A DNA stretch of 64,000 bases. It comes from Georgenia sp. SYP-B2076 (lineage in GTDB: Bacteria; Actinomycetota; Actinomycetes; Actinomycetales; Actinomycetaceae). Location of the stretch: the NCBI RefSeq assembly GCF_003991205.1, contig NZ_RXOZ01000009.1, positions 1 through 64,000 of the forward strand, given 5' to 3'. The translations under genes and the position numbers were made by a program. Below are positions 11,956-26,620 of the stretch, in pieces. The notes beneath the pieces are model-generated. The model worked only from the letters and a program-made list of their open reading frames with translations, did not search any database and was not told the DNA's origin. Position 1 is the stretch's first letter; each line of letters opens with the position of its first letter.

Positions 11956-14538
11956 TCACCACTCGACGAGGTCGGGCTCCGACGTCGCCCGTGTGCTCGC
12001 GGGCCCCGGCCCGTCATCGCTGGCGAACAGGAGCAGGTCGCCGGGCTCGGCGCGCCGCGAGATGTCCACCCTCAGTGCCACCGTGCCAGCAGTCTCGGTC
12101 ACCTCGACCCCGCCGGGCAGCTCGCCGTCGACGCGCGGAACCCACGCCGACGACGTCCGAGGTACGTGCCGGGCACGGTGGAGGCCCGCAGGGGTCCACT
12201 GGTCAAGGGCGAAGGGGGTGGCCGGGCCGAGCGTCGCCCGGTAGAACTCGGTCTCGCGCACCGGGCGGCCGTCGGCGAACCTCCCCACCCGTTCGATGAG
12301 ACGGTCGGGGAGGCGGAGGCGCCCCTCGGCCACCGCCTCCCGGATCCGGGCCGTGGCACGCTGCGCCGCCAGGGTGCTTGAGGCGCCGGTGCGGCATGCC
12401 TGGAGGAGCTGACGCCGTGGACTCAGCGGGCTGTCGCGGGAGTCGAGGTCGGCGGCGCTGTGGCCGTTGTCGGTGGACTCCTCGTCAAGGCTCGCGACCA
12501 GGTCGTCGAAGAGCTCCGAGCTCCAGCCGCGGTGGCACAGGACGGCGACGGCGGCAAGTGCGGCCGGGCTCGCGCCACGTTCGCCGGCGCCGCGCGCGAC
12601 GCCGACGCCCACCGCCGCGGGGAACGCCTGGACGACGTCGTCGGCCAGCTCGAGGGACGTGGCGGTGCCGGGGCTCCACGGCCGGTGCACCAGGTGACCG
12701 ATGATCTCGGCCCAGTCGACGAGCGCGTCGTGGAGCAGCCTCAGCCGGGCACGCTCGCGTCGCGCGAAGATCCGGGCCTCGGCACGGCGTCGCCGGTCCA
12801 CCAGCGCCTGCTCCGTCACCCACTCGTAGCGACGCAGCGTGCGGTAGTAGAAGTGGTGCGCGCCGATGATGACGGAGAGGGGCACGAGGACGGTCAGGCT
12901 CAGGGCCCAGCTGGCGCCGCGGGCGGTGGGTTGCCCGGAGAAGTAGGACGCGGTGACCACCGCCGCCACGACGAACCAGATCACGGCGACGACCCAGCGC
13001 ACCTTCAGCCGCCTCTCCGCGCGCTGCAGGGCGGCGCGGCCGGGGGGCTCGGCCGGGACGGAGGCATCCAGGCGGGCGAGCTCCTCGTCGAGCGCCGTCG
13101 CGCGACGGGTGAGCTCGTCGTCGAGCTGCCGTACCAGCGCGCCGTCCCACGACGCCCGCGCCGCGCCGCCGGGCTCGTGAGGCGCCGGAGCGGAGGGCGA
13201 CGTCGCGCCACGTCCAGGTGTGTGGGGTGGCGCCGCGCCGGGCGCGGCCGGCGTCGGGCCGGGCGCGGGGGCGATCGCCCAGGGCGGTACCAGCTCGCGC
13301 AGACCGCCGTGCTCCGGCGCGGCCAGGCCCGCCGGGAGCCCCCCGCCGTCCACGAGCGCGAAGCAGACGCGCCGCAGCTGCTGCCAGGTCTGCGGTCGCG
13401 GGGCGGGGACGCCGGCGGCCTCGGACACCCGAGCCGCGGCGTCCAGCTCGGACTCCTGGGCCTGGACGCGCTCCTGCGCCACCTCGAACATCGAGTCGGC
13501 CGTGCGGGGGCCGGTGCGCACGAGCGTGTCGCTCTCGCGCCCCACGAGGATGCCTGTGGCCGCGTCCTCGAACAGCCGCCGCCCGGTCCGCAGCGCGAGC
13601 GCCCCGCCCACCCGGAACAGGCTGCCGTTGAACCGCACCGCGTCCACCAGCGCGGCCCTGAACCCGCGGACCACCTGCCGCGGCTCCGGGGGAGGGGCCG
13701 GCGAGCCCGGGCGCCAGTCGCCCTGGTCCAGGAGGAAGCGGGAGGCCCGTCGGACGACCGCCAGCGGGTCGGTGGCCGGTCGCGCCCACCCGAGCAGCTG
13801 CGCCGGACCGGCCGCGCCCCCGGTCGCCATGGTCATGGCCTCGCGGGCGACCGCCTCGGCCGCGTCCGTTCCCAGCACGGCACGCGCCGAGGACCGCAGC
13901 ACGAAGAGGTCGCCCTCGCTGGTCGTGGAGTCGGCCTGGACGGTGTCGAGCGCGCCGCGCGGCACGCCCGACCACAAGCCGCCCACCGACGCGATCGCCG
14001 CGGCGCTGTGGCCGCGGCTGTTGCCCGGGTCGCGGACGAAGACGCTGCTGCGGTCCAGGTCGGGGCGGTCCTCGGCCGCGACGATGCCGTTGACGTCCCA
14101 GACCGGCTGGAGGTGCCCGAGGGCGAGGCCGGTGGCGCGGCTCTCGCCGATGATGAGGTTGACCCGGTGCACCCGTGTGCCGGAGACCCCGTCCGCGGAC
14201 AGCGGCACGGCGGCCTGCAGCAGGTCGCCGAGCAACCGGGCGTGCGCGGGGAAGGCGGCCGGCGGCCGGTAGGCGTGGGTGACCTGCTGGACAGCGACGA
14301 GCCGCAGCAGGTCAACGTGCCGCAGGCCCACGAGCTCGAACAGGTCGCCGGCGCGTGTCCCGTCCGGGGCGAGGAGCTGCGCCGGGACCCGCGCGAGCCC
14401 GCTGCCCTCGAGGGCGATGTCGTCGCTCACCACCCAGAGGGACTCCGTCAGGAGGCCCGCCGCCGTCCACGCGGCGGCCACGGCGCGCACCGCCCTGCCG
14501 GGTTCCCCGCCGACGAGCACCACGGAGAGGTCCGACAT
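11956..14538 (-). CDS. Large two-helix membrane protein of the tubulin-like cassette, unknown family
   Basis: The 860-residue product is unrecognised. The N-terminus (MSDLSVVLVGGEPGRAVRAVAA) looks like a Rossmann-type beta-alpha start. A proline/alanine-rich linker lies near residues 430-470. Two hydrophobic helices follow at about 512-535 (VRWVVAVIWFVVAAVVTASYF) and 540-563 (WALSLTVLVPLSVIIGAHHFYY), so both long ends are predicted on the same, probably cytoplasmic, side. The C-terminal 300 residues are rich in charged helices. The ATG lies two bases after the stop of the tubulin-like gene, so the two are coupled. An open frame extends to 15351 upstream but overlaps the tubulin-like gene. It is the last gene of the cassette. 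Confidence 0.8.
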   Translation of the reverse strand: MSDLSVVLVGGEPGRAVRAVAAAWTAAGLLTESLWVVSDDIALEGSGLARVPAQLLAPDGTRAGDLFELVGLRHVDLLRLVAVQQVTHAYRPPAAFPAHARLLGDLLQAAVPLSADGVSGTRVHRVNLIIGESRATGLALGHLQPVWDVNGIVAAEDRPDLDRSSVFVRDPGNSRGHSAAAIASVGGLWSGVPRGALDTVQADSTTSEGDLFVLRSSARAVLGTDAAEAVAREAMTMATGGAAGPAQLLGWARPATDPLAVVRRASRFLLDQGDWRPGSPAPPPEPRQVVRGFRAALVDAVRFNGSLFRVGGALALRTGRRLFEDAATGILVGRESDTLVRTGPRTADSMFEVAQERVQAQESELDAAARVSEAAGVPAPRPQTWQQLRRVCFALVDGGGLPAGLAAPEHGGLRELVPPWAIAPAPGPTPAAPGAAPPHTPGRGATSPSAPAPHEPGGAARASWDGALVRQLDDELTRRATALDEELARLDASVPAEPPGRAALQRAERRLKVRWVVAVIWFVVAAVVTASYFSGQPTARGASWALSLTVLVPLSVIIGAHHFYYRTLRRYEWVTEQALVDRRRRAEARIFARRERARLRLLHDALVDWAEIIGHLVHRPWSPGTATSLELADDVVQAFPAAVGVGVARGAGERGASPAALAAVAVLCHRGWSSELFDDLVASLDEESTDNGHSAADLDSRDSPLSPRRQLLQACRTGASSTLAAQRATARIREAVAEGRLRLPDRLIERVGRFADGRPVRETEFYRATLGPATPFALDQWTPAGLHRARHVPRTSSAWVPRVDGELPGGVEVTETAGTVALRVDISRRAEPGDLLLFASDDGPGPASTRATSEPDLVEW

Positions 14539-14540
14539 GG

Positions 14541-17500
14541 TCACCAGTCGTCCTCGGTGTCGTCCTCGATGTGCCCGACCGCGCGGCGGAGGTCGACGAG
14601 GGCGGCGAGGATGTCGAAGCGCAGGTCGTAGGACAGCGGCACGTCGAAGACGTCGGTCCGTTCGTCCACGGCGGCGAAGTGGCGGGCGTAGTTGCCGTGG
14701 AGGCGATCGAGCTGGGCCTCGACCTCCTGGCGCCGCGTCTGCGGCGTGCTCCCGGCAGGGGCGGGCACGACGGGGTTGCAGCCGTCGCGGATCCACGCGC
14801 GCAGGTCGGTCGACGGCGCCTGGTACGTGTCGTAGCCGCCGCCCATGCCGGACCTGCCGAGGTCCCGGAGCCGGACATAGGGCGCCATGGGCTCCCTGCT
14901 CGCGCGCGTGTTGACCTCCACCATGGCGAGGAGGATCGACTCGAGCACGACCGGGAGGATCTCCCGGCTCTGCACCACGTCCGTGGCCAGCAGCGGGTCG
15001 GGGAAGCTGCGGTAGCGGCCGCCGCCGCCGGCCTCGTCGGGCACCCAGATCTGCGGGACCCGGTCCGTGAGATCCAGCTGGGTCAGGACCCTCGCGGTGA
15101 ACCACCCGCGCACCATCGCGCGACGGGTCGCCGGGGCGAGGGGCAGTGCCTCCGTCAGGGAACGTGCGCGCCGCCAGCGCCAGAACTCGGCGCGGGTGTC
15201 CGGGGTCGTGTTCCGCGCGCCCCACTCGCTCGCGATCGGCTTCATCAGGGAGTCGAAGACGACCGGCTCGTACGGCGTCGCGAGCACGCTGAAGATGTCG
15301 ATCGACGCCTCGCGGCCCTCGCCGAAGGCCTTGGCGATGTCGTTGGACCACTGCTCCGTGCTCTGCAGCACCCGCCGGACGATCTCGCGGCCTGGGGAGC
15401 GCTCCGGCAGGGGGATCTCGCTGAAGGACAGCACGTGCTGCGCCTTGTTGACGTCATGCACCTGGACCAGGACCCCGGGATTGATCCCCACCAGCGGGGC
15501 CGAGGCGTTCAGCGCCGCGATGAACTGTCCCTCGAAGGCGGCCAGGCGCGCGCCGTGCTCCCTCGGGTCGGTCCTGGCCGGGTCGAGGTAGTCCCGCAGG
15601 CCCTCGCCGATGTAGCCGCCGACGGCGGTGCCCTCGCGCTCCAGCCAGCGGCGGGCGCGGCCCAGCAGCGCCTCGCCGGACGCGGCCACGTCGAAGGAGG
15701 CCCGCGACGGAGCGGCGACGATGCCGCTCTGCAGCGTGTGCTCCCGTGGCACCCACGCGGTCTCCTGGCGGACCAGGTGCTGGACGCCGGCCCGCACGTC
15801 GTCGGTGTCGAGGACCACCTGGGTGGTCGCCTCGCGCATGGCGCCGCCCGGCTCCGCGGACTCGACGGTGCGACCCACCAGCGTGCGCAGGATGCCGGGG
15901 TACCGGCTCGTCGGTTCCAGGAGGAACTCGTTGGGGGCGGCGTTCAGGCGCTCCGGGACGAGGTCGGCCTGGGGCCAGAGCGTGATCGGGGACAGCTGCC
16001 CGCCCAGCTGGGACGACTCCTCCTGCGCGAGGGCGGAAGTTCCCCGGGCCACGGCCTCACGGAGCGGGTCGACGAGGTTGGTGACGAGGTCCGGGACGAG
16101 GTCGGCGACCATTTCCCGCAGCTCCGCCTCGTCCTGGTGGACCAGCGACTCGACCGCGCGCCTGACCCCCGCCAGGATCGCGGGCGAGCTGCCGGTCAGC
16201 GTGGCCCCGCCCTGCTCGACCTCCTGGGTGACCGCCTGCTCCCCGCCCTGCGCCCAGCGGCGGTAGCGTGCCGCGTCCTCCCTCAGCTCCTCCCGAACCT
16301 GCTGCAGCTCCGTCGCCAGCATGGCCAGCATGGCGGCGGTGACGGGGCCGCCGTGCAGGCTCACCGATCGGGCGGTCTGGTCCGCGAGGCGCGGCTGGAT
16401 GGCCACGACCCAGGCGCGGTCGGCCACCTGGCGGGCCAGCCTGAGCCCGTCGTGGAAGGCGGGTCTGCGCGCGCCGGTCTCGCTGACGATCCGGTGACGC
16501 ACCTCGACGGAGGACAGCCCCTTCTCGGGCATCCCGCCGGTCACCCGCCGGTGCAGCTCGTCGGCCAGGTCGCGGGCGAGCCGGACCTGCTGCTCGGGCC
16601 GCAGCGCGGCGAGGAGGTCGCCCCGCCCCTCGCCACGCTCGTCCAGGCCGGACTCCGCCAGGAAGGACCCGAACACGTCCTGGGCGACATCGGCGACCAG
16701 GCGCCGTTCGATGCGCTCGTCGTCGGGCAGGCGCAGCTCCTCGTGCCGGCGCAGGACACGCTCGACGGCGGACCGCGCGAGGTACTCGGCTGCGTAGTCC
16801 CGGAACCGGTCGCGGCCCAGCCCCACGCGCGCCGAGCCGAGGGCCGTGAAGGGCGTCTCGGTGCCGGCCGCGTGGTTGGGCAGGTGGTCGGTGACCGACT
16901 GCGCGGTGGCGGACCAGTTCCCCTGCACGGTGGAGCCGAGGCGGTCCTGGAGGGTGACGCTGGTGACCCAGGACGCGACCGACCTGCCCATCGCCCGGTA
17001 GATGTCGTTCTGGGTGCCGTAGGACACCTGCTCGTTACGGTTTCCCACCAGGAACGGGTACCGGGGGCCGAGCCGGTTGACGGCTCCGAGCTGGATGCCG
17101 TGCCGGGCGAGCAGGTCGTTGGTCTCCTCACCGGGGCCGTCGGTGTTCCAGTACCCGCTGAGCAGCTCCCCGAGCGTGGCGAGGGAGTTGGGCCGCACGC
17201 CGCGTCGTTGCTCCTCGGGCAGGTAGTCGAAGACGTCCGGGGCGTACAGCAGGCCGATGCTCTCCGAGGCCCACGGGTCCCCGAGCGCGCGCACCGTGTC
17301 GCAGACGTCGATGACCGCACCCGCGCCCGTGCCGCCGGCGAGCGAGCAGACCACGAGCACGACGGGGTCCGGCGTGCTCGCGGCGGGCGTGGCGCCCAGC
17401 AGCCGGGTGGCCCGCTGGAGCTCGCCGACGACCTCCGCCCCGGTGAGCGCCCGGCGTGCCCTGGCGACGGCCTCGCGGATGTCCTCGAGCCCGGCGACCG

Positions 17501-17879
17501 TGATGACCCGGCCGAGCGCGCGGTACTGCCCGGCGCCCTTGCTGGCCGGGATGTTCACCTTGCCCGGGTCCGGGCGCCAGGTCCCCATCGCGTCGGCGAC
17601 GGGGGTCCGTCCGTGACCGGCCAGCGCGGCGTCGATGTGCCGATACGTGAGGCCGACGTTGACCAGGCCCTGGTAGTCCCCCGGGGGCAGCTGCGCGGGG
17701 AGGTCCGGGTCGTTCCCGTCTGCGAGGGTCGGCACGTCGATGTGGATGAACTGCCAGGCGCGCGGCAGCGCACCCTCCCAGCCGAGCTGCTCCATGCGGC
17801 GCAGAAGGTCGTCCCGGACGACGCGAAGCGTCTTCCCCCCGGATCCGCCCACACCGATCATCAGGAACGGTCGCAACAT
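14541..17879 (-). CDS. Tubulin-like GTPase (Tubulin_2 / FtsZ-like family)
   Basis: This 1112-residue protein begins MLRPFLMIGVGGSGGKTLR, a tubulin/FtsZ-type first loop. At residues 182-188 it has GGTGAGA, the tubulin nucleotide-binding signature, within VVLVVCSLAGGTGAGAVIDV. It is far longer than FtsZ (about 400 residues); the remainder is mostly helical and unassigned. It fits the 'tubulin-like' family (Pfam Tubulin_2), which Makarova and Koonin (2010) placed in a proposed membrane-remodelling system with vWA proteins. Here it lies between a vWA membrane protein (30 bases upstream) and a large membrane protein (two bases downstream). GTP binding and polymerisation are inferred from family; nothing experimental is visible. 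Confidence 0.85.
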   Translation of the reverse strand: MLRPFLMIGVGGSGGKTLRVVRDDLLRRMEQLGWEGALPRAWQFIHIDVPTLADGNDPDLPAQLPPGDYQGLVNVGLTYRHIDAALAGHGRTPVADAMGTWRPDPGKVNIPASKGAGQYRALGRVITVAGLEDIREAVARARRALTGAEVVGELQRATRLLGATPAASTPDPVVLVVCSLAGGTGAGAVIDVCDTVRALGDPWASESIGLLYAPDVFDYLPEEQRRGVRPNSLATLGELLSGYWNTDGPGEETNDLLARHGIQLGAVNRLGPRYPFLVGNRNEQVSYGTQNDIYRAMGRSVASWVTSVTLQDRLGSTVQGNWSATAQSVTDHLPNHAAGTETPFTALGSARVGLGRDRFRDYAAEYLARSAVERVLRRHEELRLPDDERIERRLVADVAQDVFGSFLAESGLDERGEGRGDLLAALRPEQQVRLARDLADELHRRVTGGMPEKGLSSVEVRHRIVSETGARRPAFHDGLRLARQVADRAWVVAIQPRLADQTARSVSLHGGPVTAAMLAMLATELQQVREELREDAARYRRWAQGGEQAVTQEVEQGGATLTGSSPAILAGVRRAVESLVHQDEAELREMVADLVPDLVTNLVDPLREAVARGTSALAQEESSQLGGQLSPITLWPQADLVPERLNAAPNEFLLEPTSRYPGILRTLVGRTVESAEPGGAMREATTQVVLDTDDVRAGVQHLVRQETAWVPREHTLQSGIVAAPSRASFDVAASGEALLGRARRWLEREGTAVGGYIGEGLRDYLDPARTDPREHGARLAAFEGQFIAALNASAPLVGINPGVLVQVHDVNKAQHVLSFSEIPLPERSPGREIVRRVLQSTEQWSNDIAKAFGEGREASIDIFSVLATPYEPVVFDSLMKPIASEWGARNTTPDTRAEFWRWRRARSLTEALPLAPATRRAMVRGWFTARVLTQLDLTDRVPQIWVPDEAGGGGRYRSFPDPLLATDVVQSREILPVVLESILLAMVEVNTRASREPMAPYVRLRDLGRSGMGGGYDTYQAPSTDLRAWIRDGCNPVVPAPAGSTPQTRRQEVEAQLDRLHGNYARHFAAVDERTDVFDVPLSYDLRFDILAALVDLRRAVGHIEDDTEDDW

Positions 17880-17909
17880 CGGGTCTCACTTCCTTGCCGG
17901 TCGGCAGCC

Positions 17910-20651
17910 TCAGTCGTCGAAGAGGGACGGCGGGGGACCGTCGTCGTCATCACCTCCCGGTGGGGGCCCGGCCCGGTCGCCGCGCCGCGCACGGTCGGCG
18001 GGGGACGACGGCGTGCCCGTCGTGCCGGCGTCGTCGTCCCAGAGCGGCGGGCGCGGGGCGAGCGGTGCGTCCCGGGCCACGCCGGGAGCCGCCGCGTCCG
18101 CCGCGGTCCCACCCGCCCCGGGGGCTCTCGCGTCCGCCCCGGGCGGCCCGGCGCGCCCTCGCAGGCCTGGGCCGACGGCCCCGGCCAGCGCGCCCTGGAG
18201 CGCGGCGTCCCGCTCGGTCGCCGCGTCGTGCAGACGTCGGTGCACCTCCTCCCAGACGGCGCTGCTCGCGGCCACCTGGTCCTGCTGGGCGGCGAGGAGG
18301 TCGCCGAGACCGTCGGTGTCCTCGGCAACGCTGACGAGCCGGCCGTGGAAGTCGCCGGCCGGGTCCGGGTCGGCCGAGAGCGCCAGGTAGAGGAGGGACC
18401 CGAGCCCGAAGCGGGCCCGCGCCCGGCGGCCGTCGTCGCTCCACGGCTCCCGGCGGTCCGTGCTGGCGACGAGCTCGCCCGACGTGCTCCGCACCCACGC
18501 GACCGGCTCCTGGAACGGCTGGAGCGGCAACCGGCGGTAGAAGTGCAGGCCCGCAGCGTCGAGGTTCGTGACCGCGCGCCGCTCCGCGGCGGGCAGGTAG
18601 CCGAAGTCGTCCGGCGTGAAGAGGGAGGCGCGCCCACCGCCCGGGTGCAGCCCGTCGGCGGCGAGCTCGACCGGGACGCTCGCCACCCTCGTGCGGGGCC
18701 CGACCGCGAACCGCGCGACCACGGCGTTGCCGACCCACGCGATGACGCACGGCAGGGCCAGGGCCAGCGCCACGAGGGCGGCCGTCAGTCCCCAGCGAAG
18801 CGGCTCGTCCACCGGGCGGGCCATCCCGGCGTCGACCGGCACCTCGACGCGCGCGGTGGGCCCGCCGCCGACCGCGGTGAGGGACACGCCGATCGTCCCG
18901 TCGACGTGGCCGTCGGCCGGCGCGCCCGCGGCGAGCTCGAACGGCCAGGTCAGGCGTTCGCCCGCCGGGATGTCGACGCAGCGGTGCGCGGAGGTCACCG
19001 CGATGCGCCCCGCCGTCGTCGGGCCCCGGAGCATGCCGGGTTCGAAGCACGCCCGCGTGGCACCGCGGTCGCTCCCCGTGAGCACCAGGTCGCTCGTCGC
19101 GGACGTCTGGCCCACGAGGTCGGGGAAGTGCAGCCGTGAGGTCTTCAGCCGCGGGAACGCGGGCGGCAGGGAGGCCGTGAGGGACGAGGTGACGCTCACG
19201 GGCCCCAGGGCGATGCCGCTGGGCGCGCTCGCGGCGGACGCGACGGCGGACAGCTCGACCGCGGCGGCGCCGCCTGCCGGGACCGTCAGCGCGCCCGAGG
19301 CCACACCCCCGCGCAGGGCGCCGAGCGGCACCGGGGTGCCGCCCGCCGTGACGGCGAGGTCGAGCGACCGGTACGCCGCCGGGTCGACCGGGGTGCCGTC
19401 GGTGAAGCGGACCGAGACGTCCACGCGTGAGGGCTCCCCGACGACCACGCCGTCCGGGGCCCCCACGGTGAGGGTGACGCCCCAGAAGTAGTACAGGTCG
19501 ACGACGGCCGGCGCCTGCGACGACGCCCCCGGCTCCAGGGTCCACACGCCGGCGGCCGGTGCCCCCGCGCCATAGGTCACGGAGACGGTCGTGAGCCCGT
19601 CACGTGACGTGACCAGCACCTTGGCGCCGCGCAGCGTCGTCGTCGCGGTGCGCAGCTCCAGGCCGCTGCCGTCGGGGGCGAGCAGGCGCGGCACCGTCCC
19701 GGCGGCGGTGTCGAGCACCGCCCGGAAGCCGGCCACCCCTCGGTCCAGCGGGATGGACAGCGCCCCGTCCGGGCAGCCGGGCCCCGGGCAGAGGACCGAC
19801 AGCGACGACCGGCCGCCCTCGATGCGGGCGCCGATGCCGGCGAAGAGGCGCCGCAGGGCCGCCGGCTGGTCGGCGCGCAGGTACGCACCCGGCGCGGCGT
19901 CCGACGCCACGGGCTGGGCGCCGCACGCCGTGCCCGCACCCGAGCCCTCCGCCACCGCGCGCAGCTCCTCCCGCGCCCGGGGCCCCACGGCGCCGGGCCC
20001 CGTGTCGGCGAACAGGGCGACGGCGATGATGGGGATGTGCGCGCCGCGGAGGCCGTCGACCAGGCCCTGCGGGTCGCACAGCTCGGCCATCGCGGCACGC
20101 TCGCTGCCCGGCACGTCGAGCTCGCCGTCCGTGAACAGCAGCAGGAGCGTGCAGGTCGTGCCCGTCAGCGCGGCCGCCCGGGACTGGAGGGAGTGCTGGG
20201 CGCCGCGCAGCGCCGCGCGGTAGTCGGTGTAGGCGGCGTGGCTGCGGGCGGGGAGGTCCTCGGCGGCCGAGCGCAGCAGCCGGTCGGCGTGGGCTCCCGC
20301 CACCGCGCCCCAGGGCACCAGCTCCGTGTACTGCGCGCCGAACGTGGCGAGGTTCGCCTCGACGCTGACCCGCCCCGCGGACGACGCCTGGAGGCCGGCC
20401 AGGGAGTCCACGGCCGTGGTGATGGCGTCGACGCGGCGGTTCTGGGGGTCGGTGCTGCGCAAGCTGCTGGACTCGTCCACGACCATCGAGACCAGGAGGT
20501 TCTCGGAGCTGGCGGCGCAACCGGCGACCTGGGCGAACGTCCGCTCCCCGACCTCGCTGAGCTCACCGGTCTGCGCCTGGGCCGGCCGCGGGAGGAGCAC
20601 CATCAACGTCGCCGCGAGGACGAGACCGGCCACGCGCAGGGCGCCGCTCAC
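17910..20651 (-). CDS. Membrane-anchored vWA-domain protein
   Basis: The 913-residue protein starts at a GTG whose sequence GTGA overlaps the stop of the preceding gene. It has a signal peptide (VAGLVLAATLMVLLPRPAQAQ) and then a vWA domain with an intact MIDAS: D59-x-S61-x-S63, Thr142 and the FTDGE aspartate (Asp175). Beta-rich extracellular repeats follow, then one transmembrane helix at about 617-645 and a roughly 270-residue cytoplasmic region ending in an acidic tail. It is predicted to bind a metal-dependent ligand outside and to contact cassette partners inside. The cytoplasmic part contains PDDFGYLPAAERRAV, similar to PDVFDYLPEEQRRGV in the tubulin-like protein. An in-frame extension to 20942 is antisense noise. 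Confidence 0.85.
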   Translation of the reverse strand: MSGALRVAGLVLAATLMVLLPRPAQAQTGELSEVGERTFAQVAGCAASSENLLVSMVVDESSSLRSTDPQNRRVDAITTAVDSLAGLQASSAGRVSVEANLATFGAQYTELVPWGAVAGAHADRLLRSAAEDLPARSHAAYTDYRAALRGAQHSLQSRAAALTGTTCTLLLLFTDGELDVPGSERAAMAELCDPQGLVDGLRGAHIPIIAVALFADTGPGAVGPRAREELRAVAEGSGAGTACGAQPVASDAAPGAYLRADQPAALRRLFAGIGARIEGGRSSLSVLCPGPGCPDGALSIPLDRGVAGFRAVLDTAAGTVPRLLAPDGSGLELRTATTTLRGAKVLVTSRDGLTTVSVTYGAGAPAAGVWTLEPGASSQAPAVVDLYYFWGVTLTVGAPDGVVVGEPSRVDVSVRFTDGTPVDPAAYRSLDLAVTAGGTPVPLGALRGGVASGALTVPAGGAAAVELSAVASAASAPSGIALGPVSVTSSLTASLPPAFPRLKTSRLHFPDLVGQTSATSDLVLTGSDRGATRACFEPGMLRGPTTAGRIAVTSAHRCVDIPAGERLTWPFELAAGAPADGHVDGTIGVSLTAVGGGPTARVEVPVDAGMARPVDEPLRWGLTAALVALALALPCVIAWVGNAVVARFAVGPRTRVASVPVELAADGLHPGGGRASLFTPDDFGYLPAAERRAVTNLDAAGLHFYRRLPLQPFQEPVAWVRSTSGELVASTDRREPWSDDGRRARARFGLGSLLYLALSADPDPAGDFHGRLVSVAEDTDGLGDLLAAQQDQVAASSAVWEEVHRRLHDAATERDAALQGALAGAVGPGLRGRAGPPGADARAPGAGGTAADAAAPGVARDAPLAPRPPLWDDDAGTTGTPSSPADRARRGDRAGPPPGGDDDDGPPPSLFDD

Positions 20652-20986
20652 TTCGCCAGCTCCGTCGCGACGACGAACGCGTGCCACGCGGCGCTGGTCA
20701 TGCCGACCACGACCGCGAGGGTGGCCACCCGGTCCAGGCGCGCCTGCGGGTTGTACCAGGCGGAGGCGCCGGCCCGCCGCCGCAGCGCGCGGTGGACCTG
20801 GACCAGGACGGTGACGGCGATGCCCCCGAGGACGTAGCCCGCCACGCCCGCCCAGAAGGCCGTGGGGCTCTCGGCCGTGAGCTCGACGCCGACGAGCGCC
20901 ACCGACGCCGCGGCTGCGGCGAGCGACACGGACGACGGCCACGCCGGGGCGCGGACGGCACGTGATCCCGCCGTCGTCTGTGCCAT
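20648..20986 (-). CDS. Small three-helix membrane protein, first gene of tubulin-like cassette
   Basis: The 112-residue product has three hydrophobic segments: SSVSLAAAAASVALVGVEL, FWAGVAGYVLGGIAVTVLV and VATLAVVVGMTSAAWHAFVV. A basic loop (RALRRRAGASAWYNPQARLDR) separates the second and third. No family is recognised. Its TGA overlaps the GTG of the vWA gene, so the two are translationally coupled and it probably acts in the same complex. I chose the ATG at 20986; an in-frame GTG at 21019 would add eleven residues. The 119-bp gap to the divergent nudC gene should hold both promoters. Confidence 0.7.
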   Translation of the reverse strand: MAQTTAGSRAVRAPAWPSSVSLAAAAASVALVGVELTAESPTAFWAGVAGYVLGGIAVTVLVQVHRALRRRAGASAWYNPQARLDRVATLAVVVGMTSAAWHAFVVATELAK

Positions 20987-21105
20987 GGGACGGCCCTTCC
21001 AGTCCTCGGCCTCGAGCACCGTGCTTGGTGACGAACGTTACTCGCGGGCGCCCACATCGGGCAGGCCCAGCAGGGCGAACGCGCCGGAGCGCCTACGGTG
21101 GGGAC

Positions 21106-22059
21106 GTGCACTCAGCCCTGCCCCTGGCCCGTTCCACCGTCGACGCCGACGCCGTCTCCCGCCCGCGGCCGGGGCTGTTGACCGCCCTCGTCGAGGAGCC
21201 CACCACCAGCGTCGTGCTCGTCCAGCACGGTCTCGTGGCGACCGACGGGGACGCCCTCGACCTCCGTGCCCCGGCGGGCGTGCGCGGGGCGACCTGGGAT
21301 CCCGAGGACCTCGCGTACCTCGGGAAGGACGACGGCGGCGCGTACCTCGCCCTGACGCTGCCCGAACGCCTCGGCGAGGAGCGCGACCTGGACGGCGTCC
21401 CGGTGGTCGAGGACGCCGCACTGGTCGACCTCGTCGAGGGCCTGACGTTCTCGCACCTGCGGGACATCGGCGACACCCTGCCGGACCGCGACGCGGGCCT
21501 GGCCACCACCGCCGTCGCCCTCTCCGCCTGGCACGCCCGCCATCCGCGCTGCCCGCGGTGCGGCGAGATCACCGAGGTCATCGACGCGGGGTGGGTGCGC
21601 CGCTGCACCGCCGACCACTCCCTGCACTACCCGCGCACGGACCCGGCCGTGATCATGGCCGTCACCGACGCCGACGACCGGCTGCTCCTGGGGCACGCCG
21701 CGCACTGGCCGGAGAACCGCTTCTCGACCCTGGCGGGGTACGTCGAGCCGGGGGAGTCGGCCGAGACGGCCGTGCGCCGCGAGGTGGCCGAGGAGGCCGG
21801 CATCGCCGTGGGCGAGGTGACGTTCACGGCCTCGCAGCCCTGGCCCTTCCCGGCCTCGCTCATGCTGGGCTTCAGGGCCAAGGTCGCGGACGGGGCGGAC
21901 GCCACGGTGCACGTGGACGGCGTCGAGGTGACCGAGGCGCGGTTCTTCACGCGAGAGGAGCTCGCGGCGGCGGTCGCCGCCAGGGCCGTGCTGCTGCCGA
22001 TGCGCTCCTCGATCGCGCTGGCGCTCATCGAGGACTGGTTCGGCGGCCCCCTCCGATAG
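21106..22059 (+). CDS. nudC: NAD(H) pyrophosphatase / RNA-decapping Nudix hydrolase
   Basis: The 317-residue protein has the NudC layout: an N-terminal domain, a zinc ribbon (CPRCG then RRC), the Nudix box GYVEPGESAETAVRREVAEEAGI (with its EExG-type core) and the diagnostic SQPWPFPASLM that separates NADH pyrophosphatases from other Nudix enzymes. It should hydrolyse NADH to NMNH and AMP and may remove NAD caps from RNA. The fourth zinc ligand is not a cysteine in the usual place (CTAD before HYPR). The GTG at 21106 starts the conserved sequence. It is convergent with mrx1, as in mycobacteria. Confidence 0.93.
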   Translation: MHSALPLARSTVDADAVSRPRPGLLTALVEEPTTSVVLVQHGLVATDGDALDLRAPAGVRGATWDPEDLAYLGKDDGGAYLALTLPERLGEERDLDGVPVVEDAALVDLVEGLTFSHLRDIGDTLPDRDAGLATTAVALSAWHARHPRCPRCGEITEVIDAGWVRRCTADHSLHYPRTDPAVIMAVTDADDRLLLGHAAHWPENRFSTLAGYVEPGESAETAVRREVAEEAGIAVGEVTFTASQPWPFPASLMLGFRAKVADGADATVHVDGVEVTEARFFTREELAAAVAARAVLLPMRSSIALALIEDWFGGPLR

Positions 22060-22062
22060 CAG

Positions 22063-22096
22063 CGAGCCCCGCGCACCGGCCGGTGCGCGGGGCTCG
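22063..22096. terminator. Bidirectional hairpin terminator
   Basis: CGAGCCCCGCGCACCGG is followed immediately by its exact reverse complement, a perfect 17-bp stem. It lies between the convergent nudC and mrx1 genes and can serve both. There is no U-tract, as is common in high-GC actinobacteria. Confidence 0.85.
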
Positions 22097-22110
22097 TGCC
22101 CCGTGGCGGG

Positions 22111-22371
22111 TCAGGCGCCGAGGCGGCTCACGACCTCGGCGAGGGAGGGGTTGGTGGCGGCCGAGCCGTCCGGGAAGAGGATGGTCGGGACGGTCTGGTT
22201 ACCGCCGTTGACCTCCTCGACGAACTTCGCCGAGCTCTCGTCCTCCTCGATGTTGACCTCGTTGTAGGCGATGCCCTTCGCGTCCAGCTGCGTCTTGAGC
22301 CGGCGGCAGTAGCCGCACCAGGTCGTCGAGTACATCGTGATGGTGCCGGCGTCGGGAGCCTGCGTCGTCAT
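22111..22371 (-). CDS. mrx1: Mycoredoxin-1-like glutaredoxin
   Basis: The 86-residue protein is a minimal thioredoxin fold with the active site WCGYC (Cys19 and Cys22) and the cis-proline segment TVPTILFPDG. CGYC is typical of mycoredoxins, which reduce mycothiol-mixed disulfides in actinobacteria. The gene sits between nudC and uvrD2, the same context as mycobacterial mrx1. Its start is 152 bp from the divergent uvrD2 start, so the two share a promoter region. Confidence 0.9.
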   Translation of the reverse strand: MTTQAPDAGTITMYSTTWCGYCRRLKTQLDAKGIAYNEVNIEEDESSAKFVEEVNGGNQTVPTILFPDGSAATNPSLAEVVSRLGA

Positions 22372-22523
22372 GGAGAGATCCTTTCAGTCGTTGCCTGTTC
22401 AACGTCCCGGGCGTTCCGATTCTTCCCCGGGGCCGCGGGGCTGCGCGGCGACCTCCCCCACCCGGGCGGCCCGGTGGGGACCGGCGCCCGGTGGTGTCCC
22501 ACGCACCTGAGACACTGGCGGGG

Positions 22524-24557
22524 ATGAGTACCGAGGAACTTCTTGCGGCATTGGACGACGACCAGCGTGCGGTGGCGGAGCACCTGAGCGGGCCGCTGTG
22601 CGTGCTGGCGGGGGCCGGCACGGGCAAGACCCGTGCGATCACCTACCGGATCGCGAACGGCGTGCGCTCCGGCGCCTACAACCCGCAGACCGTCCTCGCC
22701 GTGACGTTCACCGCGCGCGCCGCCGGCGAGATGCGCTCGCGCCTGCGCGACCTCGGCGTCGGCGGCGTCCAGGCCCGGACCTTCCACGCCGCCGCGCTGC
22801 GCCAGCTGTCCTACTTCTGGCCGACGGCGATCGGCGGCTCCGTGCCGCGCATCGCGGAGCACAAGGCGTCCCTCGTCGCGGAGGCCTCCGGCCGGCTCGG
22901 CCTCGGCGTGGACCGGGTGGCCATCCGGGACCTCGCCGCCGAGGTGGAGTGGGCCAAAGTCTCCCTCGTCACCGCCGAGGACTACGCCGCCCAGGCCGCC
23001 CGCACCGGCCGCGAGGGCGCCGCTGGTCACGACCACGCCACCATCGCCCGCCTGCTCAGCGTGTACGAGGACGTCAAGAACGAGCGCGGCGTCATCGACT
23101 TCGAGGACGTGCTCCTCCTGCTCGTGGGCATCCTCCTCGAGCGCGAGGACGTCGCGGCCGAGGTGCGCTCGCAGTACCGCCACTTCGTCGTCGACGAGTA
23201 CCAGGACGTCTCCCCGCTCCAGCAGCGCCTCCTCGACCTGTGGCTGGGCAAGCGCCGCGAGATCTGCGTGGTCGGTGACGTCTCCCAGACCATCTACTCC
23301 TTCACGGGCGCGACGCCCCGGTTCCTCACCGACTTCCCCCGGCAGTACGAGGGCGCCCCCGTCGTCCGGCTCGTCCGCGACTACCGCTCGACGCCGCAGG
23401 TGGTGGACCTGGCCAACAAGGTTCTCGCCCGCGCGGGGCGGTACCGCTCCAGCGCCGCCGTCGAGCTCGTCGCCCAGCGTCCCGGCTCGGTCCCCGTGCG
23501 CTTCGAGACGTACGACGACGACCTCGCCGAGGCGCGCGGCGTCGCCGACCGCATCGCCGCCCTGAGCAAGGACGGGGTGCCGCTGTCCGAGGTCGCGATC
23601 CTGTACCGCACGAACGGCCAGGCGGAGGCGCTCGAGCAGGCGCTGGCCGCCGCCGGCATCGGCTACCTCGTCCGTGGCGGGGAGCGGTTCTTCTCCCGGC
23701 GCGAGGTGCGCGAGGCGATCGTGCTGCTCCGCGGTGCCGTGCGCTCGAGCGTGGGGCAGGCCATGCCCGAGGCCGTGCGGGACGTGCTCGCCTCCGTCGG
23801 CTGGGCGCCCGAGCCGCCCTCCGCGCGCGGCGCCGTGCGGGAGCGGTGGGAGTCGCTGAGCTCCCTGGTCGCCCTCGCGGACGACCTGCACGCCACGCGC
23901 GGCTCGGACCTGGGCGGGCTCGTGGCCGAGCTGGACGAACGCATGGCCGCGCAGCACGCCCCGACGGTGGCCGGGGTGACCCTGGCGAGCCTCCACGCGG
24001 CCAAGGGCCTGGAGTGGGACGCCGTCTTCCTCGTCGGGGTCAGCGAGGGGCTCCTGCCCATCTCGTTGGCGGAGGGCGACGACGCGATCGCCGAGGAGCG
24101 CCGGCTCCTGTACGTGGGGATCACCCGCGCCCGCGAGCACCTGCAGCTCTCCTTCGGCCGCGCCCGCACCCCGGGCGGGCGCGCCTCACGCAAGCGGTCC
24201 CGCTTCCTCGACGGCATCTGGCCGGACGAGGGCTCCGGCACCCGCGGCGGTCTGTCCCGCCGGGCGGCGGCGCGGGCGCGCACCGAGGTGTTCGCCGAGG
24301 AGAACCCCGCCGACGCCGAGCTCTTCGACCGGCTCCGCGGGTGGCGCGGAGAGGTCGCCACGATCATCTCGAAGCCCGCCTACACCGTGCTGCACGACAC
24401 CACGCTCCAGGCGATCGCGACCGCCAAGCCCAAGGACCTGCGCCAGCTGGCCGTGCTGCGCGGCATCGGCGCCACGAAGCTGGACGCCTACGGTCCCCAG
24501 GTCCTCGCCGTCGTCCGCGGCGAGGAGGTCGACGTGCAGGAGTGGCTCGCCCGGTGA
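22524..24557 (+). CDS. uvrD2: UvrD2-type superfamily I DNA helicase with HRDC domain
   Basis: The 677-residue helicase has Walker A GAGTGKT (about 30-36), Walker B VVDEYQD, SF1 motifs such as GDVSQTIYSFTGA, LVRDYRSTPQVV, TLASLHAAKGLEWDAVF and LLYVGITRARE, and a C-terminal HRDC domain (LRQLAVLRGIGATKLDAYGPQVL). The HRDC end distinguishes UvrD2 from UvrD1/PcrA. It should unwind DNA 3' to 5' in repair or replication restart. I chose the ATG at 22524 over the in-frame GTG at 22491 because the conserved sequence starts there. It is followed by whiB7, as in mycobacteria. Confidence 0.92.
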   Translation: MSTEELLAALDDDQRAVAEHLSGPLCVLAGAGTGKTRAITYRIANGVRSGAYNPQTVLAVTFTARAAGEMRSRLRDLGVGGVQARTFHAAALRQLSYFWPTAIGGSVPRIAEHKASLVAEASGRLGLGVDRVAIRDLAAEVEWAKVSLVTAEDYAAQAARTGREGAAGHDHATIARLLSVYEDVKNERGVIDFEDVLLLLVGILLEREDVAAEVRSQYRHFVVDEYQDVSPLQQRLLDLWLGKRREICVVGDVSQTIYSFTGATPRFLTDFPRQYEGAPVVRLVRDYRSTPQVVDLANKVLARAGRYRSSAAVELVAQRPGSVPVRFETYDDDLAEARGVADRIAALSKDGVPLSEVAILYRTNGQAEALEQALAAAGIGYLVRGGERFFSRREVREAIVLLRGAVRSSVGQAMPEAVRDVLASVGWAPEPPSARGAVRERWESLSSLVALADDLHATRGSDLGGLVAELDERMAAQHAPTVAGVTLASLHAAKGLEWDAVFLVGVSEGLLPISLAEGDDAIAEERRLLYVGITRAREHLQLSFGRARTPGGRASRKRSRFLDGIWPDEGSGTRGGLSRRAAARARTEVFAEENPADAELFDRLRGWRGEVATIISKPAYTVLHDTTLQAIATAKPKDLRQLAVLRGIGATKLDAYGPQVLAVVRGEEVDVQEWLAR

Positions 24558-24565
24558 CACGGCCG

Positions 24566-24616
24566 AAAACTCTCCGGGAAATTAGATTGCCCTCGGCGGG
24601 CGGGGACCCCTAGGGT
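24566..24616 (+). promoter_or_regulatory. whiB7-type promoter with upstream AT element
   Basis: TTGCCC at 24587-24592 and TAGGGT at 24611-24616, 18 bp apart, form a plausible SigA promoter. Immediately upstream lies the AT-rich run GAAATTAGA within a region that is otherwise GC-rich. WhiB7 binds such an element next to the -35 box with its AT-hook to activate its own promoter in mycobacteria, so this fits autoregulation. Confidence 0.6.
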
Positions 24617-24691
24617 CCTTCCTGTCCGAGTTGATCGGATCCGCGCCTAGCCAGCACCAGCGGATCCCTGCCGAATGGAGGAGGTGTCGTT

Positions 24692-24847
24692 GTGATGAGG
24701 AACATCCCCGCGGTCGCGCTCGCGCCCGCCAAGCGCAACGCCGTCGTGTGCGTCGCGCGCCTCGTCATTCCCGGCACCACCGTCGCGGGAGTGCGCCGGC
24801 GCACCCCGCGCATCGACATCGACCCAGGGTCCGCACCCCAGTTCTAG
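24692..24847 (+). CDS. whiB7 leader peptide (upstream ORF)
   Basis: A 51-residue reading frame (GTG at 24692, or ATG at 24695) is preceded by GGAGGAGG at optimal distance. It encodes a basic peptide beginning MRNIPAVALAPAKRNAVV and ending in TAG at 24845-24847. It lies between the whiB7 promoter and an alternative hairpin region. Translated leaders that sense ribosome stalling by antibiotics are established for whiB7/wblC in mycobacteria and Streptomyces; the role here is inferred from this position. Confidence 0.65.
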   Translation: MMRNIPAVALAPAKRNAVVCVARLVIPGTTVAGVRRRTPRIDIDPGSAPQF

Positions 24848-24870
24848 CTCTGCACGAGCAGGTCCGAACC

Positions 24871-24927
24871 GGCCGCGGAACCCCATCGGGGTCCGCGGCC
24901 GTCGTCGTCAGGGCGACGTCCGCGGCC
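24871..24927 (+). promoter_or_regulatory. Probable whiB7 attenuator with two competing partners
   Basis: GGCCGCGGA at 24871-24879 can pair with TCCGCGGCC at 24892-24900, forming a 30-base hairpin with an inner CCCC/GGGG. It can pair instead with a second identical TCCGCGGCC at 24919-24927. The segment begins 23 bases after the leader stop codon and ends before the whiB7 ribosome site. Mutually exclusive pairing is the hallmark of ribosome-mediated attenuation. Confidence 0.6.
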
Positions 24928-24965
24928 CCAGGCCCCCGGACAGTGAACGACCTCAGGAGCAGCTC

Positions 24966-25352
24966 GTGCAGCGCACCGCCCTTCTCGACCAGACCAGCCA
25001 GGGATCCTCCGTCACCTGGGCCGCCGCCGGTTCCGCCGCGTCCGCGCAGCCCGTGCCCAGCTTCACCCGAGACGCCGGCTGGGGCGTCCTGTCCACCCCG
25101 TCCCTGTCGTCGGCCGTCACCCCGTGCCAGGAGGCCGAGGACAGCGACCTGTGGTTCGCCGAGCGCACCGCCGACGTCGAGGACGCGAAGGCGCTGTGCC
25201 GCACGTGCCCCGTGCGCGAGGCCTGCCTCGCCGGCGCCCTCGAGCGCGCCGAGCCGTGGGGCGTGTGGGGCGGGGAGGTCTTCCTCGACGGCGTCGTCGT
25301 CGCCCGGAAGCGCGGGAGGGGCCGTCCCCGCAAGGACGAGCGCGCCGCATGA
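24966..25352 (+). CDS. whiB7: WhiB7 transcriptional activator
   Basis: The 128-residue protein has the four WhiB cysteines (TPCQEAED, then CRTCPVREAC) that hold a [4Fe-4S] cluster, the turn WGVWGGE, and a C-terminal AT-hook RGRGRPRKDE. The AT-hook defines the WhiB7 subclass, the SigA-partner activator of intrinsic antibiotic-resistance genes. The GTG start follows AGGAG. Its N-terminus before the first cysteine is about 50 residues, longer than in mycobacteria, so a later start is possible. Expression is probably controlled by the AT element, leader peptide and attenuator described upstream. Confidence 0.93.
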   Translation: MQRTALLDQTSQGSSVTWAAAGSAASAQPVPSFTRDAGWGVLSTPSLSSAVTPCQEAEDSDLWFAERTADVEDAKALCRTCPVREACLAGALERAEPWGVWGGEVFLDGVVVARKRGRGRPRKDERAA

Positions 25353-25354
25353 CC

Positions 25355-25377
25355 GGGCCGCCCGTCCGCGGCGGCCC
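25355..25377. terminator. Hairpin after whiB7
   Basis: GGGCCGCC and GGCGGCCC flank a seven-base loop directly after the whiB7 stop. The remaining bases up to 25466 are low-complexity repeats of CACCGGACCGG/CCCCGT type between two convergent genes and contain nothing else recognisable. Confidence 0.6.
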
Positions 25378-25466
25378 GCGCCAGATGGCGCCGGGCCCGC
25401 CAGGTGGCGCCGGGCCCGGCGGCCCGGGTATCACCGGACCGGACCCCGTCACCGGACCGGGCCCCG

Positions 25467-26513
25467 TCACCGGTCCGCCGCGGGCCCGGCCGGCGGCGGC
25501 CCGGCCGGCGCGGGCTCGCCGCCGACCCGGTCGCAGCCGCACTCCGGGTGGACCGTCCAGCGGCGCAGCACCGGCAGCGGGCTCAGCGCGCTGACCTCGA
25601 GGGTCGTGGCGTCGGCGACCACCTCACGCCCGTCGAGCGCGGCGAGGACCTGGTGCGCGGCCAGCGCGGCGCCGAGCTGCGCGAGCGTGGCCTCCGTCCC
25701 GGGGGTGCCGCCCCGGAGCTGGGTGGCCACGGCGGGCCAGCACGGGTCGGCGTCCGTGCGGTGCAGGTCCACGCACCGCGTGCACGGCCCGCGACCGGGG
25801 ACCACGAGGGGGCCCACCGCCACGTCGATGTCCCCGACGACGACCGGCAGGTGGGTGACGTCCTCGCGCACGAGCGGGCGCAGGCGCACCGGGTCGGTCA
25901 CGCCCGCCGTGACGGCGACGAGCACGTCCGGCCGGACGCCGGGACGCGCGGACGTGCGCACCGGGAAGGCGGCCCGCAGCTGCGCCACCGCCTGCGTGGA
26001 CCGCCGGCGGCCGACGTCGCGCGGGTGGAAGGGACCCAGGTCCGCGTCCGTCACCGGGGCGTCGTCCTCCAGCAGGAGGGTGCCGACGCCCGCGGTCGCG
26101 AGGAACGTCGCCAGGAGCATGCCGAGCCGGTCGAGGCCCACGACGGCGACCGTGGCGGCCGCACGGGCGGCCCGCACCACGGAGCCGTCGCCGTCCGGCC
26201 GCAGCCGGGCCCAGTAGTCCTCGTCCGGGTCGGGCGCCGACGGCGAGGCGGTGCGCCGCGGGACGGCGCGGGCGTCGAGCACACCGGACCGCGCCAGCAG
26301 CGCGACCAGCTCGGTGACCCGCTCCGGCGGGATCCGCAGCATGCGTCCCACGCGCAACAGGTCCGCCTCGGTGGGCTCGTGGCGCAGGTGGTCGACGAGC
26401 CGCTGCTCCGGCGGGGTGAGATGCTCCAGGACGACGGCGCACCGCGGGTCCACGCCGACCTGGCTCTCGCCCTCGCGCCGCCACAGCACGCTCAGCCCCG
26501 GACGCAGGCGCAT
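25467..26513 (-). CDS. ThiF/E1-like adenylyltransferase-fold protein
   Basis: The 348-residue product has a short winged-helix-like N-terminus (LTPPEQRLVDHLRHEPTEADLLRVGRML) and then an E1/ThiF-type Rossmann domain (AATVAVVGLDRLGMLLATFLATAGVGTLLLEDDAPVTDADLG). A CTRCVDLH cysteine pair and a final HPECGCD suggest metal binding. The glycine-rich loop reads GLDRLG, which departs from the usual GxGxxG, so ATP binding may be weak. A homologue sits in the equivalent mycobacterial position. GGGAGG precedes the ATG. Function unknown. Confidence 0.75.
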   Translation of the reverse strand: MRLRPGLSVLWRREGESQVGVDPRCAVVLEHLTPPEQRLVDHLRHEPTEADLLRVGRMLRIPPERVTELVALLARSGVLDARAVPRRTASPSAPDPDEDYWARLRPDGDGSVVRAARAAATVAVVGLDRLGMLLATFLATAGVGTLLLEDDAPVTDADLGPFHPRDVGRRRSTQAVAQLRAAFPVRTSARPGVRPDVLVAVTAGVTDPVRLRPLVREDVTHLPVVVGDIDVAVGPLVVPGRGPCTRCVDLHRTDADPCWPAVATQLRGGTPGTEATLAQLGAALAAHQVLAALDGREVVADATTLEVSALSPLPVLRRWTVHPECGCDRVGGEPAPAGPPPAGPAADR

Positions 26514-26620
26514 CCTCCGCCTCCCTCGTGCGGGTCGCCCGACCCGCGACGGCGAGCCTGGCACGGGGGAGGGGGCTCCCGCCGGGCGCGCCCACAGCCT
26601 GTGGACGCGCCCGGCGGGCG

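What the first reader, a model, noticed from the sequence alone, without database searches (positions are those of the whole stretch)
11956..20986. Four-gene tubulin-like / vWA membrane cassette
A 1112-residue tubulin-like GTPase is tightly coupled to an extracellular vWA receptor-like protein, a three-helix protein and a large two-helix protein. Gaps are -4, +30 and +2 bases. This predicts a membrane-anchored cytoskeletal complex with an outside sensor. A comparative-genomics proposal exists for tubulin-like plus vWA systems (Makarova and Koonin 2010), but I know of no experimental role, and the two flanking membrane proteins are unassigned here.
Basis: partly seen in the sequence, partly recalled or inferred. 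Interest (0 to 1): 0.88.

Follow-up and report, generated by a model that had tools for sequence, protein, structure and literature searches.

The report
Tubulin-vWA cassette with matched C-terminal tags
A four-gene bacterial membrane cassette built around a divergent tubulin-like protein is real and recurs in many actinobacteria, and its tubulin and membrane partner usually end in similar short peptides that differ between cassettes but match within one, as if both dock into a shared, private socket.

Summary
In detail: four minus-strand genes at 11956-20986 with gaps -4, +30 and +2. The 1112-aa protein is Tubulin_2/FtsZl1 (Pfam E 5e-51) with an FtsZ/TubZ-like fold model.

New: tubulin and partner end in matching peptides that differ between cassettes (DDW/VEW here; EREFL/DREFL, KSGI/NSGI, EPLL/EPLL, EDRLS/EDRLS). 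In 35 clusters under 60% identity, 20 share the last residue (2.8 expected). The last five residues score z 12.7, reached by 0 of 20,000 permutations. The vWA tail shows no such match. About ten clusters do not match.

The cassette is patchy with empty sites and homologous to the tubulin part of GAP1-N2 conflict systems, but its genome has no GAP1-N2. A membrane/secreted-type HNH nuclease gene lies nearby in 21 of 36 relatives, not here.

Best reading: a stand-alone membrane conflict module assembled through a cassette-private C-terminal docking code. Function and reader are inferred.

The parts
20648..20986 (-). Gene 1, small membrane protein, 112 aa, three predicted helices (stop codon 20648-20650)
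   Evidence: equivalent small membrane ORF in 40 of 41 relatives, 0 of 203 displaced controls; only 20 of those 40 found by phmmer with this protein
17910..20651 (-). Gene 2, vWA protein, 913 aa from GTG: signal-like helix, ectodomain with vWA, one transmembrane helix, cytosolic part and disordered-looking tail ending PPPSLFDD
   Evidence: (PF13519 E 1.5e-7)
20127..20477 (-). vWA MIDAS region, residues 59-175 (D59, S61, S63, T142, D175)
   Evidence: each kept in at least 98% of 44 aligned sequences
18732..18788 (-). Transmembrane helix of the vWA protein, about residues 622-640
   Evidence: hydropathy; P0002 numbering is one higher
14541..17879 (-). Gene 3, Tubulin_2/FtsZl1 GTPase-like protein, 1112 aa
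16764..17864 (-). Tubulin/FtsZ nucleotide-binding domain, with the motif AGGTGAG (residues 181-187)
   Evidence: Pfam PF13809 over residues 6-372; S179, A181, G182, G185, G187 invariant in 36 sequences
14544..14558 (-). C-terminal tag of the tubulin, TEDDW (residues 1108-1112)
   Evidence: the only stretch of the model with pLDDT below 50; matches the partner's tag across relatives
11956..14538 (-). Gene 4, two-helix partner, 860 aa, homologous to the protein after the tubulin in GAP1-N2 tubulin operons
12859..12993 (-). Transmembrane hairpin of the partner, residues 516-560
   Evidence: helices in the model
11959..11973 (-). C-terminal tag of the partner, DLVEW (residues 856-860), at the end of a disordered tail 843-860
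21028..24557 (.). Flanking conserved block nudC (+), glutaredoxin-like mrx (-), uvrD (+): present in 9 of 9 genus members for nudC; the cassette inserts on either side of nudC or is absent
   Evidence: not part of the system

Best explanation
It is a stand-alone, membrane-anchored conflict (defence-type) module. It is a GAP1-less relative of the actinobacterial tubulin/vWA systems, and its parts are held together by a cassette-private C-terminal docking code. Shown by sequence: four near-constant core genes (small membrane protein, vWA receptor-like protein, Tubulin_2 protein, two-helix partner). Shown statistically: the tubulin and the partner end in the same short peptide, which changes from cassette to cassette but changes in both proteins together, while the vWA tail does not follow. 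Inferred: both tails are free peptides (disordered in both models) that bind one and the same pocket, so they can compete for it or be gathered by it. The pocket is encoded within the cassette, most likely in the cytosolic part of the vWA protein or in the tubulin or partner themselves. The extracellular vWA, with its MIDAS metal site, senses something at the envelope, and this changes how the tubulin assembles on the membrane-bound partner. In many relatives the effector would be a membrane-anchored or secreted HNH nuclease encoded next door. This Georgenia copy has none nearby, so it would use another effector or the tubulin assembly itself.
For: Tag matching: 67 tubulin/partner pairs; 35 clusters below 60% identity; last five residues z 12.7, 0 of 20,000 permutations; last residue identical in 20 of 35 (2.76 expected), second-last 20 of 35 (2.68 expected); residues -10 to -6 only z 2.5, -25 to -21 z -1.5. 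Disjoint nearest pairs: 16 favour own partner, 1 against, 11 ties, p 2.7e-4; permutation within similarity groups z 5.6, 0 of 20,000. vWA tail control z between -0.1 and 1.1. Where matching tag residues are identical their codons are the same 43 times and synonymous 50 times, so this is protein-level matching. New genomes: 5 of 6 with a recognised partner share the last residue. Private reader: Georgenia EYE_87 carries AFL/AFL while the window, same genus, carries DDW/VEW. Both tags disordered in models. Conflict side: patchy, 4 of 9 genus members, 19 of 297 in the order, 28 of 394 in the class; empty sites; homology to the GAP1-N2 operon partner (GAP1-N2/GAP1-M in L044); HNH gene in 21 of 36 relatives with loci of 20 kb or more against 12 such domains in nine whole Georgenia genomes; a Meiothermus plasmid carries vWA-tubulin between HmaABC and BrxL.
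Against: No activity of any kind was measured. About ten of 35 clusters do not match (for example L066, L079, L045, L147, L040, L033, L073, L074, L048), some in broken or masked loci. In 13 Streptomyces-like loci plus L035 no homologous partner was recognised and the tails mostly do not match. The Meiothermus tails do not match either. The reader of the tag is not identified. The HNH gene is absent next to the window cassette, next to G. ruanii, and from 15 of 36 relatives. PADLOC has no model for the four proteins. GmrSD_C genes are also ordinary genes in each Georgenia genome.
Confidence: 0.5

Rival explanations
1. Membrane-remodelling or vesicle machine, as Makarova and Koonin proposed for FtsZl1/vWA operons: the tubulin polymerises under the membrane and bends it, the vWA and membrane proteins being adaptors.
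For: Published proposal (PMC2875224, parts 1-2 of 5 read); tubulin fold; three of the four proteins have membrane helices.
Against: Patchy presence with empty sites; nuclease neighbours; relatives inside defence loci. The proposal itself rests on genome context.
Confidence: 0.2
2. Envelope machine that handles extracellular DNA or neighbours (uptake, adhesion or competition), with the vWA as adhesin and the HNH protein as a surface nuclease.
For: Extracytoplasmic vWA with intact MIDAS; in 20 of 21 loci the HNH protein has a hydrophobic segment before its DH motif.
Against: No uptake or secretion genes recur: apart from the HNH family, no blastp cluster of the 115 flanking genes spans more than two of the 16 loci. 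The HNH gene is absent from 15 of 36 loci.
Confidence: 0.13
3. The matched tail is a degron or processing signal read by a protease, so that tubulin and partner are removed together, rather than a docking peptide.
For: Short, disordered, extreme C-terminal, as in known C-terminal degrons (recalled).
Against: Two members of one genus carry different tags, each matched within its cassette, so a common host protease would not explain the variation; no protease family was found in the four proteins.
Confidence: 0.15
4. The match is an artefact of relatedness, gene conversion, or the ribosome-binding site at the end of the tubulin gene.
For: Closely related genomes share tags; the tubulin stop lies next to the partner start.
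Against: Signal remains under 60% and 50% clustering, in nearest-pair contrasts and within-group permutation; codons differ; the partner end has no such constraint in the window, and the signal stops about five residues in.
Confidence: 0.02

Closest known systems
FtsZl1 / Tubulin_2 with vWA operons (Makarova and Koonin 2010, PMC2875224)
   Same: Same tubulin family (Pfam PF13809) and the vWA neighbour; unassigned membrane proteins noted in such operons.
   Different: No P-loop GTPase, protein kinase or OmpA gene among the seven flanking window genes scanned; matched C-terminal tags are not mentioned in the parts read (1-2 of 5).
GAP1-N2 DO-GTPase conflict systems, actinobacterial tubulin theme (Kaur et al. 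2020, PMC7159879; section 29 and search passages read)
   Same: Tubulin with a C-terminal helical domain, membrane vWA protein, and a homologous partner protein after the tubulin.
   Different: Window genome has no GAP1-N2; cassette is only four genes. A term search of that paper found no C-terminal tail or short linear motif ('C-terminal peptide' twice, the one shown passage being about another system).
Eukaryotic -EEY tails of alpha-tubulin and EB1 read by CAP-Gly proteins (PMC3303835, abstract read)
   Same: A tubulin and a partner end in the same short C-terminal peptide.
   Different: Tag sequence varies between cassettes; no CAP-Gly hit in the four proteins; analogy only.
HmaABC/BrxL locus of Meiothermus taiwanensis plasmid pMtWR-220 (L148)
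   Same: A vWA gene, a Tubulin_2 gene and a third protein in a row.
   Different: Embedded in a DNA-modification defence locus; third protein has no family; tails do not match.

Membership tests
FtsZl1 / Tubulin_2 | FtsZ-like N-terminal domain with the glycine-rich GTP-binding loop | tested here: met
   PF13809 E 5.4e-51; AGGTGAG at 181-187; Foldseek FtsZ 8h1o prob 1.00, E 7.5e-4, the only match at E 0.001 or less
FtsZl1 / Tubulin_2 | Long helical middle part and further C-terminal domain | tested here: met
   Model with long helices at 391-622 and a mixed domain to 1102
FtsZl1 / Tubulin_2 | vWA gene in the operon | tested here: met
   Gene 2; vWA MIDAS kept in relatives
FtsZl1 / Tubulin_2 | GTP hydrolysis and polymer formation | not testable with these tools
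   needs purified protein
GAP1-N2 DO-GTPase conflict system | GAP1 protein | tested here: not met
   PF20013 has 0 matches in the window's genome; the control rings in Corynebacterium glutamicum
GAP1-N2 DO-GTPase conflict system | DO-GTPase | not tested
   no search made for the GTPase family in the whole genome; not among the seven flanking genes scanned
GAP1-N2 DO-GTPase conflict system | Tubulin and membrane vWA protein | tested here: met
   partner homology
GAP1-N2 DO-GTPase conflict system | FNIII repeats | tested here: not met
   no fibronectin family among the four proteins at E 1 or less
CAP-Gly / -EEY system | Same C-terminal peptide on tubulin and partner | tested here: met
   (as a property, not as homology)
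CAP-Gly / -EEY system | CAP-Gly reader domain | tested here: not met
   no CAP-Gly hit in the four proteins; reader unidentified
Known anti-phage systems in PADLOC | Match of any of the four proteins | tested here: not met
   0 families at E 1 or less

The most novel reading that the evidence does not exclude
A bacterial tubulin system uses a private, fast-changing C-terminal docking code: tubulin and its membrane partner carry the same peptide and a cassette-encoded pocket reads both. This is an independent parallel to the -EEY code of eukaryotic microtubules, and the code insulates co-resident or laterally moved cassettes from each other. Coupled to an extracellular vWA sensor and, in many lineages, a membrane-bound HNH nuclease, it makes a tubulin-based defence at the cell envelope.
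Probability: 0.4. Interest if true: 0.9.

Novelty: new variant of a known kind. Interest (0 to 1): 0.74.

Why it matters
FtsZl1/vWA operons have been known since 2010, yet my searches of the held library showed no experiment on them. The matched tag gives the first sharp, testable handle: it says which two proteins share a binding partner, which residues to remove, and that specificity changes between cassettes. If true, it is a second, independent case of a tubulin sharing its tail code with a partner. It would also link tubulins to envelope-level conflict through a sensor and often a nuclease.

Tried and rejected
Chance open frames: rejected by profile, fold and co-occurrence. Gene conversion or relatedness as cause of the matching tags: rejected by codons, clustering, nearest-pair contrasts and within-group permutation. 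A tag on the vWA protein: no match in register, though many vWA tails carry an acidic-aromatic end of their own. The same partner family in Streptomyces-like loci: hhalign probability 0.5. Known fold for the partner: no PDB match at E 0.001 or less. Solved relative by sequence for the tubulin: none. Phage records: no match; plasmids: 3 records. Second structural search (pdb_via): not available.

Rows dropped before counts. One search examined 124 loci with a tubulin and dropped 57: 39 lacked a usable tubulin or partner end because the locus is short or cut or no complete partner was found (26 of these are the short stubs L101-L126), 13 are Streptomyces-like loci L127-L139 without a recognised partner, and 5 are L028, L030, L035, L041 and L148. 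No row was dropped by eye; broken ones (L033 with masked bases, L045, L075) stayed in. The 67 pairs include genomes fetched twice; clustering removes them. Only the first 25 families are shown, so nothing is claimed about families below that. Signal peptides and topology were judged by hydropathy only.
Full report
What is there. Four genes lie on the minus strand, in the order small membrane protein, vWA protein, tubulin, two-helix partner, with spacings -4, +30 and +2 nt. Pfam gives Tubulin_2 for the third (E 5.4e-51) and VWA_2 for the second (E 1.5e-7); the other two have no family above cut-off. The window belongs to a 4.28-Mb genome whose genus includes Georgenia, as its relatives match Georgenia contigs by length. 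It holds one Tubulin_2 gene.

Structure. The tubulin model (36 sequences) has mean pLDDT 90.4 and pTM 0.80; its only stretch of three or more residues below 50 is 1108-1112, the extreme C-terminus. Foldseek ranks FtsZ first (8h1o, E 7.5e-4, probability 1.00; the only hit at E 0.001 or less), followed by other FtsZ, TubZ and tubulins at E between 1e-3 and 5e-2. The partner model has mean pLDDT 82.0 and pTM 0.70. It has an N-terminal alpha/beta domain, a helical middle with the membrane hairpin, a C-terminal domain, and a disordered tail at 843-860, with no PDB match at E 0.001 or less. The vWA protein has a signal-like N-terminal helix, intact MIDAS residues kept in at least 98% of 44 relatives, conserved cysteines in the ectodomain and one helix near 622-640.

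Are the four genes a unit? A scan of the genome collection with the tubulin alignment gave 55 loci, mostly Actinomycetota. Partner homologues are found on the same strand in 44 of 45 loci that hold 1.5 kb or more beyond the tubulin stop. A small ORF with two or more hydrophobic segments precedes the vWA domain in 40 of 41 loci; the same test displaced into the genes finds 0 of 203. Only 20 of these 40 are found by phmmer with the window's own small protein, so homology of all is not shown by sequence.

The matched tags. The tubulin and the partner end alike within a cassette but differently between cassettes. Examples: window EDDW/LVEW; Georgenia EYE_87 RAFL/DAFL; Occultella EREFL/DREFL; Subtercola KSGI/NSGI; Leifsonia RSGV/YSGV; IMCC26207 DDDGD/DDEGD; a MAG labelled Luminiphilus EPLL/EPLL; LacPavin53 EDRLS/EDRLS; Nocardioides DVWN/DDFN; and in operons of the GAP1 type L031 DEVF/PEVF, L044 EIEY/PLEY, L142 FGSGF/FGEGF. 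Of 124 loci with a tubulin, 67 gave a complete pair. At under 60% tubulin identity there are 35 clusters: the last five residues score z 12.7 (0 of 20,000 permutations), the last residue is identical in 20 of 35 against 2.76 expected and the second-last in 20 of 35 against 2.68. The signal falls to z 2.5 at -10 to -6 and z -1.5 at -25 to -21. At under 50% identity (27 clusters) z is 11.2. A first, smaller set gave z 7.3 over 16 clusters, with the vWA tail as control at z 0.9. Disjoint nearest pairs: 16 for, 1 against, 11 ties, sign test p 2.7e-4; permutation within similarity groups z 5.6. Matching residues use the same codon 43 times and a synonymous one 50 times. In six further genomes with a recognised partner, five share the last residue and the sixth has two aromatic ends. 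About ten of 35 clusters do not match, and in Streptomyces-like operons the protein after the tubulin is not recognisably homologous and tails mostly do not match.

What the tags mean. Both tails are disordered in the models, lie at the extreme C-terminus and covary, while neighbouring residues do not. The economical reading is one pocket that reads both. Two cassettes in the same genus with different tags argue that the pocket is cassette-encoded and not a host protein. This is inference: the pocket is not identified. The nearest precedent is the -EEY tail shared by alpha-tubulin and EB1 and bound by CAP-Gly proteins (PMC3303835, abstract); there is no homology.

What the cassette may do. Presence is patchy: 4 of 9 in the genus, 9 of 59 relatives, 19 of 297 in the order, 28 of 394 in the class, 25 of 398 and 5 of 24 in two families; these count any Tubulin_2 gene. 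A block with nudC, mrx and uvrD is conserved in the genus. In G. ruanii the cassette lies between mrx and nudC, in G. thermotolerans apparently also (split over two contigs), and in the window on the other side of nudC. In six other genus members examined mrx and nudC are neighbours without it, EYE_87 holding its copy elsewhere. The partner is homologous over 818 columns to the protein after the tubulin in GAP1-type operons, where one downstream gene was confirmed as GAP1-N2/GAP1-M (L044; others judged by eye from their N-termini). The window's genome has no GAP1-N2. Kaur et al. 2020 (PMC7159879, section 29 and passages) class such tubulin systems as conflict systems.

The nuclease neighbour. 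Of 115 flanking genes at 16 loci, 10 match GmrSD_C (next most frequent family: 3), nine of them one blastp cluster and one a full GmrSD-like enzyme beside the EYE_87 cassette. An HMM of the nine finds a relative in 21 of 36 loci of 20 kb or more, 20 of 21 with the DH motif and a hydrophobic segment before it. It lies directly after the partner, upstream in opposite orientation, or up to about 2.6 kb away. It was not found in nine GAP1-type or other loci but was in 3 of 4 new loci without a recognised partner. The background is 12 GmrSD_C domains in nine Georgenia genomes, two of the 12 flanking the EYE_87 cassette. The window cassette has none nearby.

Verdict. Observation confirmed; interpretation partly supported. 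Best explanation: a stand-alone membrane conflict module with a private docking code, confidence 0.5 for the whole chain. The tag covariation itself I hold as near certain, docking as more likely than not, and the conflict role as somewhat better than even.

Noticed in passing
window 21028-28102; L028, L029, L161-L167: The block nudC-mrx-uvrD-ThiF-zincin is conserved in the genus, and the cassette sits on either side of nudC in different species: a possible insertion hot spot.
   Followed up: partly
L148 (Meiothermus taiwanensis plasmid pMtWR-220) 1733-21383: HmaA/B/C, a PDC-S01 ATPase, vWA, Tubulin_2, an unassigned 680-aa protein and BrxL lie in one row: a tubulin/vWA module inside a DNA-modification defence locus.
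   Followed up: partly
L127-L139, L035: Streptomyces-like operons have a different protein after the tubulin; several of those proteins and vWA tails end in acidic-aromatic motifs such as DDLW, ENPW, DPW.
   Followed up: partly
L080/L144, L089/L145, L097, L098, L066, L079, L082: The partner is encoded by two consecutive ORFs in several lineages; in L080, L097 and L098 the second piece carries the tag matching the tubulin.
   Followed up: partly
L051 16764-19316: A GmrSD-like restriction enzyme (GmrSD_N and GmrSD_C) with an extra MGMT-type DNA-binding domain beside the EYE_87 cassette.
   Followed up: no
L030/L047, L045, L075: Tubulin or partner frames are interrupted in some MAG or draft loci; possibly assembly errors or decay. 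Left as they are.
   Followed up: no
L194-L197: Microbacteriaceae tubulin loci without a recognised partner; three of four carry the HNH gene.
   Followed up: no
L147 (Rhodococcus sp. JS3073 megaplasmid): A tubulin/partner operon on a 1.39-Mb plasmid with non-matching tails.
   Followed up: no
control genomes: Corynebacterium glutamicum hits both Tubulin_2 and GAP1-N2, so a tractable model host carries a GAP1-type relative.
   Followed up: no
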